Part shown: piece after piece, positions 3,122-23,487 of the stretch
How positions within the stretch are numbered: the first letter of the stretch is position 1
Layout of the letters: the number at the start of each line of letters is the position of its first letter
Source of the DNA: a virus
Virus record (IMG/VR): IMGVR_UViG_3300006736_000094
Location: 1-23,487 of that record
Strand: one strand, 5' to 3'
DNA: 23,487 nucleotides
The notes under the pieces: model-generated
Told to the model about the DNA's origin: nothing
The model's input: the letters and a program-made list of their open reading frames with translations, nothing else
Databases searched by the model: none
Program-made: the position numbers and the translations under genes

Positions 3122-3414
3122 AACCGATCTGGAAGTTTGCAGGAAGTTCCTAGAGATACTCCCACAGATCCGCCGTTTAAGGGGGCTAGCCGCTCGCGAG
3201 AGCTCATATCTTTTAATTGCAGTCTAAAATACCATATTGCAGAAAAACTCGGCAATCGATATCCGCATATCGAGCCTTTACTCGAGTAAAAGCTCGATGC
3301 GCGGAAACAGCAGATCCATCTAATATCGTAAAAATACGGGCTTTTTTCTACGAGCTCGGGCTCGATCCGCCAGCTACTAGATACGATTATCGTAAAATAT
3401 CGGGCTATATATAG
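3093..3414 (+). pseudogene. Broken small gene, disrupted by an 11-nt duplication
   Basis: An ORF starts at ATG 3093 behind GAGG and has phage-like codons up to about 3137. The same style of coding then continues in a different frame from 3149 to 3286, encoding ...FKGASRSRELISFN... and ...YHIAEKLGNRYPHIEPLLE. It then moves to a third frame up to the stop at 3412-3414 (...IRAFFYELGLDPPATR...). Removing 3138-3148, an insert flanked by copies of GGAAGTT, joins the first two pieces in frame. A second lesion lies around 3287-3320. Read literally, the window offers only short ORFs here (3093-3227 and 3217-3414). I do not recognise the product. A sequencing error could explain part of this. Confidence 0.5.
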
Positions 3415-13136: not shown

Positions 13137-13184
13137 GGTACTACCTGGGTTATACCTAGGTACTACCTAGGTAGTACCTAAGTA
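13137..13184. repeat. Nested palindromes and direct repeats between tube and chaperone genes
   Basis: GGTACTACCT occurs at 13137-13146 and 13159-13168. Its reverse complement AGGTAGTACC directly follows at 13169-13178, making a perfect 20-bp palindrome, and pairing extends to 13153-13184 with one mismatched pair. No U-run follows. It may limit read-through from the highly expressed tube gene to the chaperones, serve as an mRNA processing site, or be a protein-binding site. Confidence 0.7.
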
Positions 13185-17313: not shown

Positions 17314-17832
17314 ATGACAGATTCTTTTGTTGTATCTGAACGCGACATGAAGCGGCTCCAAACTATGCTCACCTGGTTTGAGCATACCGGCCGAGCCATG
17401 AGCCAGGGCCGCCGCCGGCAGGTTGTGCTGGATTCCGAGGAGAATACCTACATAGCGGAGGTTGATAGCAACGCAACGGGGGGGGGGTATTATAATTGTT
17501 ACTTGCAATCCCTGGATGCTACTAACTGGGATACTAATAACGATATCTGTAGCGATACCGGAGATACGATTGTAGTATTAAATTTAGCTGAAACTGGAAC
17601 TTCCGGCCATGTATTGACTGCCGACGATAAAATAATATGTAGTAAGTTTATCGACGACGAAGGCAACGACAGATATATTGGCATCGGCTGGACAGCTATT
17701 ACGGTTATTACTGATGTACAGGTTGACGGGCCCAATAGCGAGCTCGAAGATAAAACAAGAACGAATGTTATGGTTTTGGCTGCAAGTGCCGAAAGTGCCT
17801 GGACGGTATTTCATACCGGAGATACCTGTTAG
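17314..17832 (+). CDS. Tail-tip protein with poly-G tract, possible host-recognition role
   Basis: A 172-residue protein following the beta-helical gene. The N-terminal 35 residues are helical and basic (RDMKRLQTMLTWFEH). The rest is beta-rich and acidic with many Asp, Asn and Thr. The codons for Thr-Gly-Gly-Gly (residues 55-58) form an uninterrupted run of ten G. One extra G would stop translation three codons later (TAA), and one fewer would give a stop about 30 codons on. The tract could therefore switch the gene on and off by slippage. No named family is recognised. The position suggests attachment to the tail tip or fibre. Confidence 0.55.
   Translation: MTDSFVVSERDMKRLQTMLTWFEHTGRAMSQGRRRQVVLDSEENTYIAEVDSNATGGGYYNCYLQSLDATNWDTNNDICSDTGDTIVVLNLAETGTSGHVLTADDKIICSKFIDDEGNDRYIGIGWTAITVITDVQVDGPNSELEDKTRTNVMVLAASAESAWTVFHTGDTC
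17478..17487 (+). repeat. G10 homopolymer in a tail gene
   Basis: Ten consecutive G bases lie within the 17314 gene, by far the longest G run in the window. Such tracts are hot spots for slipped-strand mispairing and are also prone to sequencing error. Confidence 0.95.
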
Positions 17833-18267
17833 ATGGGAAATGTACAATTTAAAGACAACAAAATATTATTCGTTAATAATAAAATAGCTATGCATGAAGA
17901 TTGTTGTTGTGATACATGCCCAGTTGATTGTTCAGGCTGCGATAGCTCTTATACGGTGGATATTTCTGGTTTTACTGGTACTTGCGGAACTTTTTTTAAT
18001 GGCACGCATACAGTAGAAAATGATTCGGATTGTATGTGGGTACAGGCCTCGGGCGGTTTAGGCGCAGGGGATGCACCGGGAATAATTCTTAGTTGTTATT
18101 TGGGTATATGGAGTTTAGTTGCTACCAAATTATACCAGCCCGGTCCAATACTTTATGTTTATAAAATAAGCGGACAAATTGACGCAAAAAATTGCCCGGA
18201 TGATACATATGATATGCATAATGTGTTAAGATGTTCCGGGCAAACAGGAACTGCGGTTGTAAGTTGA
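17833..18267 (+). CDS. Cysteine-rich tail-end protein, unknown function
   Basis: A 144-residue protein with an N-terminal motif FKDNKILFVNNKIAMHEDCC followed by C-DTCPVDCSGC (Cys cluster at residues 24-36) and more Cys spread along the sequence (about 13 in total). The opening resembles small proteins found at the end of tail operons in some phages, but I cannot name a family. The many cysteines suggest metal binding or disulphides in a beta-sheet protein exposed on the virion. Composition shifts here to more T and fewer GC-rich palindromes. It overlaps the next gene by 37 nt, or only a few bases if that gene starts at TTG 18264. Confidence 0.5.
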   Translation: MGNVQFKDNKILFVNNKIAMHEDCCCDTCPVDCSGCDSSYTVDISGFTGTCGTFFNGTHTVENDSDCMWVQASGGLGAGDAPGIILSCYLGIWSLVATKLYQPGPILYVYKISGQIDAKNCPDDTYDMHNVLRCSGQTGTAVVS

Positions 18268-18741: not shown

Positions 18742-18951
18742 TTACTTTTTTTGGTTTGCGATTTTTGCCGTTCCTCTAATAATCCTATCGGTGCGCTTAT
18801 CTTCTATATGATGGTTAAGCACCCAAAAAGCGTGCATAACGCCAGGGATCCAAAATAAACAGGTCAAGAAGATATTAATAATAGTGCTACCGAGTTTACC
18901 GCAAAGCAATACACACAGGGGCGGGAATAGAATAGCTAATAAATAACGCAT
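18742..18951 (-). CDS. YqaE/Pmp3 family small membrane protein
   Basis: A 69-residue protein with two hydrophobic helices (about residues 3-18 and 24-44) and the family signature: ILFPPLCVLL, then a Gly turn, then NIFLTCLFWIPGVMHAFWV. A polar, basic tail follows. YqaE/Pmp3 proteins sit in the inner or plasma membrane and influence membrane potential and ion or stress tolerance. The ATG lies 2 nt after the integrase stop, with GGAGGA inside the integrase end, so it is translated from the integrase mRNA. A phage copy would be a prophage-expressed accessory gene (moron), perhaps changing host membrane properties or blocking superinfection. That role is inference. Confidence 0.85.
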   Translation of the reverse strand: MRYLLAILFPPLCVLLCGKLGSTIINIFLTCLFWIPGVMHAFWVLNHHIEDKRTDRIIRGTAKIANQKK

Positions 18952-18953
18952 GA

Positions 18954-19868
18954 TTAGTCCTCCGAATCATAAAGGTTTTTTAATACTTCTATCCGCGGAT
19001 CGTATTTTTCCGGCACTAGATTACCGTAGTAATCAAGAGTGGTTTGTATGTTACTATGTCCGAGCCATTCTGATACCAGGTGGATACCTGGGCCGTTAGG
19101 TTGTCTTAATAGTTGAGTAGCGAATGTATGCCTTAAAACGTGCCAGGTCTGATGATCGGTAAAACAGTTATATTTCTCTCTTACCTTTCCCAATATCATA
19201 GTCCAGCTACGAAGCGATCGCGGCCGATCCTTTTTTTTACCTGGAAAAACATAACCTGATTTCTCCCGAAAAATAATTAAATCATCGGCAAGATCTTTTA
19301 GCAGCGGTATGGATCGGGATTTTCGGTTTTTAGTGGGATCTTGGATCGTTGACACTATGCGAATTATCCCCAAGTCAAAATCTATATTTTCCCATCTTAG
19401 AAATCTGAGTTCGTTCTCTCTCATGCCGGTAGAAATAGCGGTTTTGATCTCGTAGTAATAGCCTAACCTTTTAGACCAAATCAGCAAGATTTTAATTTGT
19501 TCTTTCTCCAGGTAAACCGGCGGATTAACGATAATACGCGGCAATTTAATTTTAAGGGCCGGATTGTATGATAAATACTGATTATCACAACAATAATTAC
19601 AGAATGATCGAATAGCAAAATAATGGTTATGGGTAGTATTAGGCCGGTTTTTTTGGGAAAGATGCAGGATATATCCCTGAATTTTTTTGGAGGTAATATC
19701 ATTAACAGCGGATATGTGATTATACCAGATAAATCCGTTAACTTGCTGTAGGTAGTGCTCGGCGGTATGTTTGTCGTTTAAACAGTTAATCTGTAAGTGC
19801 CAATCCTCTAAGCAGTTATTTAATTTGACCGTTCCTTGATCTCGCTTGTTATTTGAGTAACGAAGCAT
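18954..19868 (-). CDS. int: Tyrosine recombinase (phage integrase)
   Basis: Catalyses site-specific recombination between phage and host attachment sites. It has an N-terminal SAM-like core-binding domain (residues of about 20-105) and a catalytic domain from about 115. All catalytic residues are visible: Arg150 in TGMRENELR, Lys183 in the NRKSRSIPL hairpin, His243 and Arg246 in HVLRH, His271 in EWLGHSN and Tyr280 in TTLDYYG. The length of 304 aa is typical, and no arm-binding domain is obvious. It is transcribed leftward, divergent from the early leader, and shares an mRNA with the YqaE-like gene. It is more AT-rich than the structural genes. attP is expected nearby, but I cannot define it. 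Confidence 0.92.
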   Translation of the reverse strand: MLRYSNNKRDQGTVKLNNCLEDWHLQINCLNDKHTAEHYLQQVNGFIWYNHISAVNDITSKKIQGYILHLSQKNRPNTTHNHYFAIRSFCNYCCDNQYLSYNPALKIKLPRIIVNPPVYLEKEQIKILLIWSKRLGYYYEIKTAISTGMRENELRFLRWENIDFDLGIIRIVSTIQDPTKNRKSRSIPLLKDLADDLIIFREKSGYVFPGKKKDRPRSLRSWTMILGKVREKYNCFTDHQTWHVLRHTFATQLLRQPNGPGIHLVSEWLGHSNIQTTLDYYGNLVPEKYDPRIEVLKNLYDSED

Positions 19869-19928: not shown

Positions 19929-19956
19929 TTGACGATTTGACCGAATGGCCGATAAT
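19929..19956 (+). promoter_or_regulatory. Sigma70-type promoter of the early operon
   Basis: TTGACG (19929-19934) and GATAAT (19951-19956) are separated by 16 nt. Each matches the consensus at five of six positions. The promoter points rightward, so transcription would start near 19963 and produce the structured leader. Confidence 0.6.
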
Positions 19957-19965
19957 TCCCTATGA

Positions 19966-20108
19966 CAATTCAGGCTGAAAATAAAAACTTTTCGGCAAGA
20001 ATTGCAGATTAGACGGTTTTTCGTGGAACGCTATCTAAAGTATACTCCGAATACCGCCAAAAGCCAGGGATTGAGCCGAAAATGGATAAAAAAAAGCTGT
20101 CAATTCTT
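19966..20108 (+). promoter_or_regulatory. Mutually exclusive pairing elements in the leader
   Basis: The segment 19989-20004 (TTTTCGGC, AA, GAATTG) can fold back on 19966-19981 (CAATTC, AG, GCTGAAAA) to give 6 plus 8 bp. The same bases also pair downstream. TTTTCGGC matches GCCGAAAA at 20075-20082 exactly. AAGAATTGCAG (19997-20007) pairs with CTG and CAATTCTT at 20097-20108, 11 bp with one bulged base. These structures cannot all form together, which is what a switch or an antisense target would look like. Confidence 0.5.
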
Positions 20109-20150
20109 AACGATTATAACAATTGCGTAAATCCTCGCGTTTTTATCCAA

Positions 20151-20200
20151 CCCAGGAGCAAGGGCCGTATCGGTGACGATGCGCCCTTGTTAATCCTGGG
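20151..20200 (+). other. Long hairpin with GTGA tetraloop
   Basis: CCCAGGA (20151-20157) pairs with TCCTGGG (20194-20200), CAAGGG with CCCTTG, and CGTATCG (20166-20172) with CGATGCG (20177-20183), closing a GTGA loop. That is 20 bp with one G-U pair, a 1-nt bulge and one internal loop. G-to-U wobble use instead of perfect DNA symmetry favours an RNA-level structure. Confidence 0.75.
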
Positions 20201-20242
20201 TAATGGCTCCTATCGCAAAGTTTACTGCGATTGCGAATTTCT

Positions 20243-20293
20243 ACCTCGGGGCGCTCCGGTTTTTCAAGCGCAGCGCCTCGGGGTTCTTTTTTT
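20243..20293 (+). terminator. Intrinsic terminator directly before the first early gene
   Basis: ACCTCGGGGCGCT (20243-20255) pairs with AGCGCCTCGGGGT (20272-20284), 13 bp with two G-U pairs around a 16-nt loop. It is followed by T7 at 20287-20293. GAGGAG, the ribosome binding site of the next gene, begins at the next base. This position suggests attenuation of the early operon instead of the end of a separate gene. Confidence 0.75.
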
Positions 20294-20308
20294 GAGGAGT
20301 TTCAAGTT

Positions 20309-21052
20309 ATGCGCGAGAAAAACAAGGTGTATCACGTTAAAGGTTATACAGATCGCTATGTACCGCTCACAAAAAAAGGCGCGCCGTTTAAGTGTATCCC
20401 GCCGTTTTTGCTCATCCCCAACAAACCGCAAGGCCGCGGGATCCGGAAACTATTCCGCCGAGCGGTAGCGCCGCTATTTAGCGAGGGTATAGCCGCCGAA
20501 AAAGATAACGTGCCGGAGCCGATCCGGAGGGTTACATATTTTGGCATATTTATTCTATTGCTCGAGGAGAGCACACAACATAGCGCAGCCTGGCTAAGAG
20601 GCTATCTGCTAAATAATGACGATCAGCCGGCGGAGATCGCCGACATAGCCGAGGCGCTCAAGCTCGAAGATCATAAAGAGTTTTTAACTCACGCGCTCGA
20701 TTTTCTGGTTAAAGGGATGGGATGGATAGAGCTAGCGCCATGGCCGATCATTAAGCCGGCCGATCCGGTTAAACCGGTTATCGTAAACGAACAGGAGAAA
20801 GCCTGGCTCTACTTTTTTAATCGGTTTGATCGCGTTATACCTATCTATAGCTCGGACGGTAAAAAAGAGCTTTTAACGAGGAGCGATTATACCTCGATAA
20901 AAAACATATTTAAGGATCACTATAGAAAATGCAATAACGGAGAGTGGGATAAACGCCGGAATGAGCTTATACAGATCGCCGATCGAGCCAGCGACCAGGC
21001 GAGCAAGCCTATAGCTTATTTTATCTCGGAGGTCAAAAGGATCTATGGTTGA
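20309..21052 (+). CDS. Possible phage replication protein (helix-turn-helix type)
   Basis: A 247-residue protein. The start ATG 20309 is chosen because GAGGAG lies 9 nt upstream. A longer frame from 20231 would run through the terminator hairpin. It is helical, with a middle part (ADIAEALKLEDHKEFLTHAL, then LDFLVKGMGWIEL) that looks like a winged-helix domain followed by a Pro-rich linker and a charged helical C-terminus. First gene after the early promoter, and this layout, are typical of phage replication initiators, but no family signature is certain. It could be a regulator instead. Its stop overlaps the next gene by 8 nt. Confidence 0.4.
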   Translation: MREKNKVYHVKGYTDRYVPLTKKGAPFKCIPPFLLIPNKPQGRGIRKLFRRAVAPLFSEGIAAEKDNVPEPIRRVTYFGIFILLLEESTQHSAAWLRGYLLNNDDQPAEIADIAEALKLEDHKEFLTHALDFLVKGMGWIELAPWPIIKPADPVKPVIVNEQEKAWLYFFNRFDRVIPIYSSDGKKELLTRSDYTSIKNIFKDHYRKCNNGEWDKRRNELIQIADRASDQASKPIAYFISEVKRIYG

Positions 21053-21239
21053 TAAAGTATTGTTTAGTAGTGAATCGGTAGAGTGGGCAACGCCGCAAGA
21101 AACTTTTAATATATTAAATGAGGAGTTTGATTTCACTCTAGATCCCTGCGCGAACAAGGATAACGCGAAATGCAAAAAATACTTCACAAAAAACGAAGAT
21201 GGATTAAATCAATACTGGGAGGCAATAGATCATGGATAG
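21045..21239 (+). pseudogene. Truncated phage Dam-type N6-adenine methyltransferase
   Basis: The 64 residues match the N-terminal part of the phage DNA N-6-adenine methyltransferase family: SVEWATPQETFNILNEEFDF, then TLDPCA, NAKC, YFT and DGL-x2-YW. Family members continue for about 100 further residues with a catalytic (N/D)PP(Y/W) motif shortly after this point. Here the frame stops at TAG 21237, followed at once by TAA two codons on, and the DNA belongs to the next gene. The catalytic motif is therefore missing and the product cannot methylate. The surviving fragment supplies the ribosome binding site (GGGAGG) for the next gene. It may be a relic or a reduced SAM-binding peptide. Confidence 0.75.
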
Positions 21240-22522: not shown

Positions 22523-22594
22523 TTTAAATACTATTTTTTCCTTTCGAATCCTGGCCGGTTAATGCGCCGGCTAAGTAATATTCCAACATTTTGA
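22523..22594. other. Short intergenic region with a small hairpin
   Basis: It contains a short inverted repeat GCCGG/CCGGC (about 22553-22570) without a following U-run and a T-rich stretch at 22532-22540. A weak terminator for either strand is conceivable but not supported. Confidence 0.25.
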
Positions 22595-22741
22595 ATGATG
22601 CCTATGAGCTCGATAAACAACATAAAAAAAACTTATGGAGGATCAGTTATCCTGCCGCCGCCGGAGCCGGATCCGGCAGTTGGGCTCATAGGCAATTATA
22701 TAAATCAGTCAACGGATCAACTCATGTTAGAGGCGATATAG
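22595..22741 (+). CDS. Small 48-residue protein, unknown function
   Basis: A short frame from ATG 22595 to TAG 22739-22741 with the phage's typical codons (CCG CCG CCG GAG CCG GAT). The product is acidic in its second half and contains SVILPPPEPDPAVGLIGNYI. Its stop overlaps the GTG start of the next gene as TAGTG, the same arrangement as at 3708-3712, which argues for a real coupled pair. Which of the three consecutive-looking ATG codons (22595, 22598, 22604) is used cannot be told, as no clear ribosome binding site is visible. Another frame over the same DNA is also open and cannot be excluded. Confidence 0.45.
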   Translation: MMPMSSINNIKKTYGGSVILPPPEPDPAVGLIGNYINQSTDQLMLEAI

Positions 22742-23079
22742 TGGACATAGAAAAAGGCCGTTTATTATGGGATCCCACAGATCCGCCGAGCGTACGCCAG
22801 GCAACCAGCGAGGCCGCGGCCAAGAGCGTTAAATCTAAAGTGCCGGTGCAAGAATACCGGATACTCTATTATCTCCGCTCTCGCGAGCTCTCAGGGGCCA
22901 CGGATGAGGAGATCCAGAGCGCTCTAGGTATGCCAGGTAATACCGAGCGGCCGAGGCGGATAGGGCTACTCAAAAAGGGGGATATATTCCAGAGTGCCGA
23001 TCGGCGTAAAACCAAGAGCGGCAAGAGTGCTATCGTATGGTGTATATCGGCAGAGGGCTATAGAAAGGTAAGGCTATGA
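22741..23079 (+). CDS. Winged-helix DNA-binding protein
   Basis: A 112-residue protein. GTG 22741 is chosen as start: GAGG lies 7 nt upstream and it overlaps the previous stop. A longer open frame back to TTG 22591 has no signal. Residues 35-100 show a winged helix: YRILYYLRSRELSGATDEEI, the recognition-helix region ALGMPGNTERPRRIGLLKKG, then a wing with RRKTKSGKSAIVWCIS. This pattern is common in small phage proteins that bind DNA. Possible roles are a late regulator or, since it is the nearest DNA-binding gene upstream of the terminase on a circular map, a small terminase-like packaging factor. Both are speculative. Confidence 0.6.
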   Translation: MDIEKGRLLWDPTDPPSVRQATSEAAAKSVKSKVPVQEYRILYYLRSRELSGATDEEIQSALGMPGNTERPRRIGLLKKGDIFQSADRRKTKSGKSAIVWCISAEGYRKVRL

Positions 23080-23459
23080 GTACAAGGGTAGTCAATATAA
23101 AAAAGTGTAGGGCTTTCGGTGCATATATAGGCCGCAAGTACAGGCGGGATACTAAGCATAAGGTTAATATAAATCCGTACGCTAATCCTTTTACCGTTGG
23201 GCCGGATGGTAACAGGGATTAGGTATTATTAAAATACGTCGAGTGGTTGCTCCAACCAGGACAAAGACGGCTCTTGGATCATATGAGATTACACTTAAAA
23301 GATAAGGTGCTCGGCTGCTATTGCGGCGGTAAAGCCGGCCTAACCGCTCCGGATCCTATCATATGCCACGGTAAGATTATAGCTACGATCTGCGATTCTC
23401 CATGGCCTGGCTTATTTGCGTTTAAGATCGCTAACTCTATATACTATAGGTACTACTAG
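23076..23459 (+). pseudogene. DUF4326 family gene interrupted by an in-frame amber codon
   Basis: The ATG at 23076 overlaps the previous stop and opens a frame of 48 codons ending in NPFTVGPDGNRD. TAG then falls at 23220-23222. The same frame continues as VLLKYVEWLLQPGQRRLL ... KVLGCYCGG ... CHGKIIATI to the stop at 23457-23459. Both halves belong to one DUF4326 domain, in which the Gly-x-R-(D/E)-(E)-V segment is normally uninterrupted. A single change GAG to TAG explains the interruption. The family is common in phages and has a Cys/His pattern (CYC ... CH) but no established activity. The gene may be dead, or read through in a host with an amber suppressor. Confidence 0.8.
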
Positions 23460-23475
23460 AGATCCCCACGGTGCG

Positions 23476-23487
23476 AGCACGGAAAGG
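23476..23487. repeat. Terminal 12-bp direct repeat, right copy (possible cos)
   Basis: Identical to bases 1-12. It ends the window 17 nt after the last stop codon, which fits a genome end between the rightmost gene and the terminase region. Confidence 0.6.

What the first reader, a model, noticed from the sequence alone, without database searches (positions are those of the whole stretch)
19929..20308. Structured early leader with promoter and terminator: possible RNA-based lysogeny switch
Seen: a good promoter, about 280 nt of strong nested inverted repeats, then an intrinsic terminator ending at the ribosome binding site of the first early gene. Also seen: an integrase but no recognisable repressor anywhere in the window. 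Known: in satellite phage P4, immunity is provided by a small RNA from the early leader that causes premature termination, and the C4 RNA of P1/P7 acts in a related way. Inference: this phage may use such an RNA switch, or the leader may be a new structured RNA class or the replication origin.
Basis: partly seen in the sequence, partly recalled or inferred. Interest (0 to 1): 0.8.

Follow-up and report, generated by a model that had tools for sequence, protein, structure and literature searches.

The report
Structured early leader with terminator

Summary
The feature is real but smaller than described. The significant structure is 20073-20284 (212 nt, z -6.6), the most structured such stretch of the genome: a predicted three-way junction (20073-20209) with a 22-pair GUGA-capped hairpin, then a -27 kcal/mol intrinsic terminator (20243-20284, U-tract to 20293). 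GAGGAG follows directly at 20294 and the ATG is at 20309. The first 110 nt fold no better than shuffles; the promoter is plausible but not above chance; the 20082 frame does not score as coding. The genome looks complete (12-bp terminal repeats) and has an integrase; no repressor family was detected.

Best reading: a transcriptional attenuator. Transcription stops at 20293 by default and the early operon needs readthrough, by a mechanism not identified; no competing antiterminator fold was found. The P4/C4-like immunity reading has no positive support: no Rfam match and no significant pairing with the terminator arm. Relatives at 30-45% terminase identity show no homologue of the integrase or first early gene, so the decisive covariation test could not be run. 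Gene 20309-21052 is an orphan; a replication role is a guess. A new member of a known kind.

The parts
19929..19956 (+). candidate early promoter TTGACG-16-GATAAT; start of RNA expected near 19963
   Evidence: consensus scan, 10/12, not above chance
19964..20005 (+). 5' hairpin of the predicted leader RNA
   Evidence: pair probability up to 1.0, but the 5' region as a whole is not structured above shuffles
20073..20209 (+). predicted three-way junction: P1 20073-20077/20205-20209, P2 20083-20092/20140-20149, H1 20150-20201
   Evidence: pair probabilities 0.6-1.0 for these three helices; z -5.2 for 20060-20240
20150..20201 (+). hairpin H1, 22 pairs, GUGA loop, -37 kcal/mol
20243..20293 (+). intrinsic terminator: stem 20243-20284 (-27.2 kcal/mol), tail TTCTTTTTTT
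20294..20299 (+). ribosome binding site GAGGAG, directly after the U-tract
   Evidence: sequence
20309..21052 (+). first early gene, 247 aa, orphan; possible DNA-binding or replication protein
   Evidence: ORF and codon usage typical of this phage; no family match; poor structure model
20259..20272 (+). terminator loop and inner arm complementary (12 of 14) to 20310-20323 at the gene start

Best explanation
The region is the untranslated leader of the early operon and acts as a transcriptional attenuator. RNA polymerase starts near 19963, transcribes a structured RNA domain, and by default stops at the intrinsic terminator ending at 20293. The first early gene is made only by polymerases that read through, because its ribosome binding site begins directly after the U-tract and leaves no room for a promoter in between. 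The structured domain would set how much readthrough occurs, by acting on polymerase in cis or by binding a host or phage factor. Shown (by computation): the fold, the terminator, its position against the RBS, and the lack of a good competing antiterminator fold. Inferred: that transcription starts at 19929-19956, that readthrough is regulated and by what, and any role of the gene in replication.
For: Terminator of -27 kcal/mol whose U-tract touches GAGGAG. The folded core is the top-ranked structured 212-nt stretch of the genome, z -6.6. The plus strand folds better than the minus strand and alone carries the U-tract. The ORF through the hairpins scores below 99% of real 70-codon segments of this phage. 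Forbidding the terminator costs 27 kcal/mol, so termination is the default. The geometry, about 330 nt from start to SD, resembles pIP501, whose repR promoter lies 300 bp upstream of the repR SD with an attenuating leader (PMC4981023).
Against: No relative with the leader was found, hence no covariation. The promoter is not above chance. No antiterminator fold was identified. In control loci, terminators directly before an RBS also occur where nothing suggests regulation, e.g. L050-L052. No expression data.
Confidence: 0.5

Rival explanations
1. A stand-alone small RNA gene of about 220-330 nt that acts in trans; the terminator is simply its 3' end and the downstream gene lives on leakage.
For: Compact fold ending in a strong terminator. 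Terminator loop and inner arm complementary to the start of gene 20309, -18.3 kcal/mol, reached by 0.2% of shuffles and the best of 30 gene starts. IsrK of Gifsy-1 shows that one prophage promoter can yield a short terminated RNA and a longer readthrough mRNA (PMC4825925).
Against: The complementarity was found among many comparisons; no relatives; no Rfam match.
Confidence: 0.17
2. An insulator: the terminator blocks host transcription from entering the early genes of the integrated prophage, as terminator T1 does in Tn916, and early transcription passes it by antitermination.
For: Position next to the integrase, at the start of the early operon; Tn916 precedent of an insulating terminator with a structured antiterminating RNA, canT (PMC11658703).
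Against: The attachment site is not located; a plain insulator does not need the 137-nt junction upstream.
Confidence: 0.13
3. A P4-CI- or C4-like immunity RNA that causes early termination in lysogens and replaces a protein repressor.
For: Integrase but no repressor family detected in an apparently complete genome; alternative pairings of 19997-20004 with 19966-19971 or 20101-20108.
Against: No Rfam match; the 5' region that would hold the complementary segments is not structured above chance; uncharacterised proteins remain that could be repressors (20309, 21232, 22591).
Confidence: 0.07
4. Antisense attenuation as in pIP501: a minus-strand RNA from within the leader drives termination.
For: Perfect extended -10 TGTTATAAT on the minus strand at 20121-20113; similar leader length.
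Against: About 3% expected by chance (four TGNTATAAT in the window); no -35; no alternative fold to be trapped.
Confidence: 0.07
5. The hairpins act as DNA, for instance as an origin of replication, or the 20082 frame is a real gene.
For: Orphan first gene that may be an initiator; a 128-codon open frame.
Against: No iterons, no DnaA boxes in the leader; codon score not coding-like; strand asymmetry and U-tract point to RNA.
Confidence: 0.06

Closest known systems
pIP501/pT181-type attenuated rep leader
   Same: untranslated leader of about 300 nt with a terminator before the SD of an early gene (pIP501: PMC4981023; pT181 from own knowledge)
   Different: no antisense RNA shown, gene function unknown, phage rather than plasmid, no antiterminator fold found
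HK022 put RNA
   Same: structured nascent RNA in an early phage leader upstream of terminators, no phage protein needed (PMC9378689)
   Different: put is about 70 nt with two stem-loops and acts on distant terminators; here about 212 nt with a junction and its own terminator; antitermination not shown, no sequence comparison made
Tn916 canT RNA and terminator T1
   Same: cis RNA of 341-452 nt and a terminator near the end of an integrating element (PMC11658703)
   Different: no sequence comparison made; antitermination and insulation not shown here
Gifsy-1 IsrK
   Same: one promoter can give a short terminated RNA and a longer mRNA (PMC4825925)
   Different: no Rfam match; different genes around it; trans action not shown here
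P4 CI RNA and P1/P7 C4 RNA
   Same: early leader RNA tied to termination in an integrating element (own knowledge)
   Different: no Rfam match, no significant complementarity with the terminator arm, a full phage rather than a satellite

Membership tests
Transcriptional attenuator leader | intrinsic terminator in the 5' leader just upstream of the regulated gene's start | tested here: met
   hairpin 20243-20284 with U-tract, RBS directly after
Transcriptional attenuator leader | leader transcribed from an upstream promoter | tested here: inconclusive
   candidate 19929-19956, not above chance
Transcriptional attenuator leader (self-refolding type) | mutually exclusive antiterminator structure | tested here: not met
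   best partner of the 5' arm is matched by 25% of shuffles; the default fold favours the terminator by 27 kcal/mol. This speaks against a self-refolding switch, not against factor-dependent readthrough
Transcriptional attenuator leader | regulated readthrough | not testable with these tools
   needs expression data
P4 CI / C4 immunity RNA | match to a described RNA family | tested here: not met
   no Rfam match at gathering score; at E up to 10 only three unrelated chance matches. That Rfam holds a C4 model is from own knowledge
P4 CI / C4 immunity RNA | complementary leader segments that redirect transcription to termination | tested here: inconclusive
   19997-20004 can pair with 19966-19971 or 20101-20108, but the 5' region is not structured above chance
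P4 CI / C4 immunity RNA | a stable RNA confers immunity on the lysogen | not testable with these tools
   needs experiment
HK022 put RNA | about 70-nt two-stem-loop RNA with put sequence, bound by RNA polymerase | not tested
   no put alignment at hand; the predicted structure here is larger
pIP501-type antisense attenuation | antisense promoter and RNA inside the leader | tested here: inconclusive
   extended -10 on the minus strand at 20121-20113, about 3% by chance

The most novel reading that the evidence does not exclude
A full-sized integrating phage without a protein repressor that decides between lysogeny and lysis with a new class of structured leader RNA controlling readthrough at the early terminator.
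Probability: 0.07. Interest if true: 0.8.

Novelty: new member of a known kind. Interest (0 to 1): 0.33.

Why it matters
If readthrough is regulated, this is a further case of RNA-level control of early phage transcription, and it would give a test of how a small integrating phage without an obvious repressor keeps its early genes quiet. As it stands it is one sequence without relatives: a lead, not a discovery.

Tried and rejected
Peptide-pattern scans of IMG/VR with gene 20309 (whole, middle, C-terminal part), terminase, portal and integrase, and of GTDB genomes with the capsid protein: only a near-identical contig covering the first 11.6 kb and two distant matches. tblastn of gene 20309 in phages and plasmids: nothing. 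Exact 20-base loop patterns in viral and genome contigs: 11 hits, all chance (38-48 identical of 100 bases, pattern included). Terminase-profile scan: relatives at 30-45% identity, but no match to gene 20309 or the integrase in 17 of their records, so covariation could not be counted. The closest relative, L018/G001, ends in a tail gene and lacks the early region. TAG readthrough of the leader ORF (opens 19962-20597): rejected, as TAG is a common ordinary stop here and the upstream frame does not score as coding. A -1 slip on the T-run joining the 20082 frame to gene 20309: possible on paper (T TTT TTG) but dropped, since the 20082 frame is not coding-like. boxA-like CGCTATCTAAA at 20029: one of 18 such matches in the window, 12 expected. 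Origin of replication: no iterons, no DnaA boxes in the leader. Fold search with the gene 20309 model was not run because the model is poor (pLDDT 47).

Full report
What is there. The intergenic region lies between a minus-strand tyrosine integrase (18954-19868) and a plus-strand run of early genes beginning at ATG 20309. A promoter-like site TTGACG-16-GATAAT lies at 19929-19956. It is well placed but not above chance: 9 promoter-like sites were found against 9.8 expected, and 8.7% of shuffles of this region contain a match of at least 10/12.

Structure. 20140-20295 folds at -74.7 kcal/mol (z -7.5, none of 200 shuffles as good). The core 20073-20284 has z -6.6, and the top-ranked of 219 212-nt windows along the genome lies over it. 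By contrast 19962-20140 has z -0.6, so the strongly structured part is about 212 nt rather than 280. Pair probabilities give a three-way junction: P1 20073-20077/20205-20209, P2 20083-20092/20140-20149, and H1 20150-20201, a 22-pair hairpin capped by a GUGA tetraloop (-37 kcal/mol). A moderate hairpin at 20212-20236 follows (probability about 0.5), then the terminator 20243-20284 (-27 kcal/mol) with TTCTTTTTTT. The plus strand folds better than the minus strand and alone carries the U-tract, so the functional form is most likely RNA of the plus strand.

Coding or not. The 20082 frame is open for 128 codons, but its first 70 codons score -0.025 per codon on this phage's own codon usage, below 99% of real 70-codon segments, and within the upper 7% of stop-free wrong-frame segments. 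It has no family match. It is most likely not a gene, though the test is not absolute.

Arrangement. The U-tract runs directly into GAGGAG (20294-20299), with the start codon at 20309. There is no room for a promoter between terminator and RBS, so the first early gene depends on transcripts that pass the terminator, unless a promoter lies within the hairpins. In a control of 1.24 Mb (window and fetched phage loci), 453 terminator-like sites were found by lax criteria and 27 were followed by an RBS and ORF, several of them ordinary compact terminators. The arrangement is uncommon but not diagnostic.

How it may work. Forbidding the terminator hairpin costs 27 kcal/mol, and the best upstream partner of its 5' arm is matched by 25% of shuffles. 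Termination is thus the default and no refolding switch is visible. Readthrough would need something more: a structured RNA acting on polymerase in cis, as HK022 put does without a phage protein (PMC9378689) or canT in Tn916 (PMC11658703); an antisense RNA as in pIP501, whose repR promoter lies 300 bp upstream of the SD (PMC4981023); or a protein. One further observation: the terminator loop and inner arm (20259-20272) are complementary at 12 of 14 positions to 20310-20323 at the gene start; the duplex of -18.3 kcal/mol is reached by 0.2% of shuffles and is the best of 30 gene starts. It could link the terminated RNA in trans, or the loop in cis, to translation, but it was found among many comparisons.

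Relatives. No homologue of gene 20309 was found in IMG/VR, the phage and plasmid collections or the profile libraries. A terminase-profile scan gave relatives with 30-45% terminase identity that share terminase, portal and capsid, but none of 17 records matched gene 20309 or the integrase. AlphaFold2 without an alignment gave a poor model of gene 20309 (mean pLDDT 47); its helical middle resembles a winged helix to my eye, which suggests but does not show a DNA-binding or replication role.

Immunity. The genome appears complete: a 12-bp direct repeat at its ends, and a near-identical contig starting at the same base, suggest cohesive ends. No repressor family was detected among the proteins scanned, so that part of the finding stands, but uncharacterised proteins remain (20309, 21232, 22591). 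The P4/C4 reading has no Rfam match and no significant complementarity of the needed kind. It is possible but unsupported.

Verdict. A real, probably non-coding structured leader with a strong terminator, best read as an attenuator of the early operon. It is a new member of a known kind, without detectable relatives in the collections searched.

Noticed in passing
1-12 and 23476-23487: 12-bp direct terminal repeat AGCACGGAAAGG; a near-identical contig (L002) starts at the same base, so probably filled-in cohesive ends and a complete 23.5-kb genome.
   Followed up: partly
23076-23456: DUF4326 gene (Pfam E 2e-12 with X at the stop) with an in-frame TAG at 23220-23222; TAG is otherwise a common ordinary stop in this genome, so a broken gene or suppression.
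   Followed up: partly
21045-21239: Dam methyltransferase reduced to its first 64 residues, ending in a TAG that overlaps the next gene's start region.
   Followed up: no
179-390: Second most structured 212-nt stretch of the genome (z -6.5), around the terminase start near the genome end; may relate to packaging or terminase translation.
   Followed up: partly
13137-13184 and 3262-3305: Two further palindromes of about 45 bp between genes; the first is built from repeated CCTAGGTA-type units.
   Followed up: no
22588-22695: Inverted repeat TGCCTATGAGC...GGCTCATAGGCA around the start of gene 22591 (window z -6.4); the product matches phrog_1123 and mycobacteriophage proteins, one annotated as helix-turn-helix.
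   Followed up: no
20113-20121 (minus strand): Perfect extended -10 TGTTATAAT inside the leader, a possible antisense promoter; about 3% by chance.
   Followed up: partly
18742-18951 (minus strand): Phage-borne Pmp3-family membrane proteolipid gene next to the integrase.
   Followed up: no
17314-18267: Two tail-region genes in one frame separated only by TAG, the second starting with ATG immediately after it; the second has its own GGAG, so readthrough is not needed.
   Followed up: no
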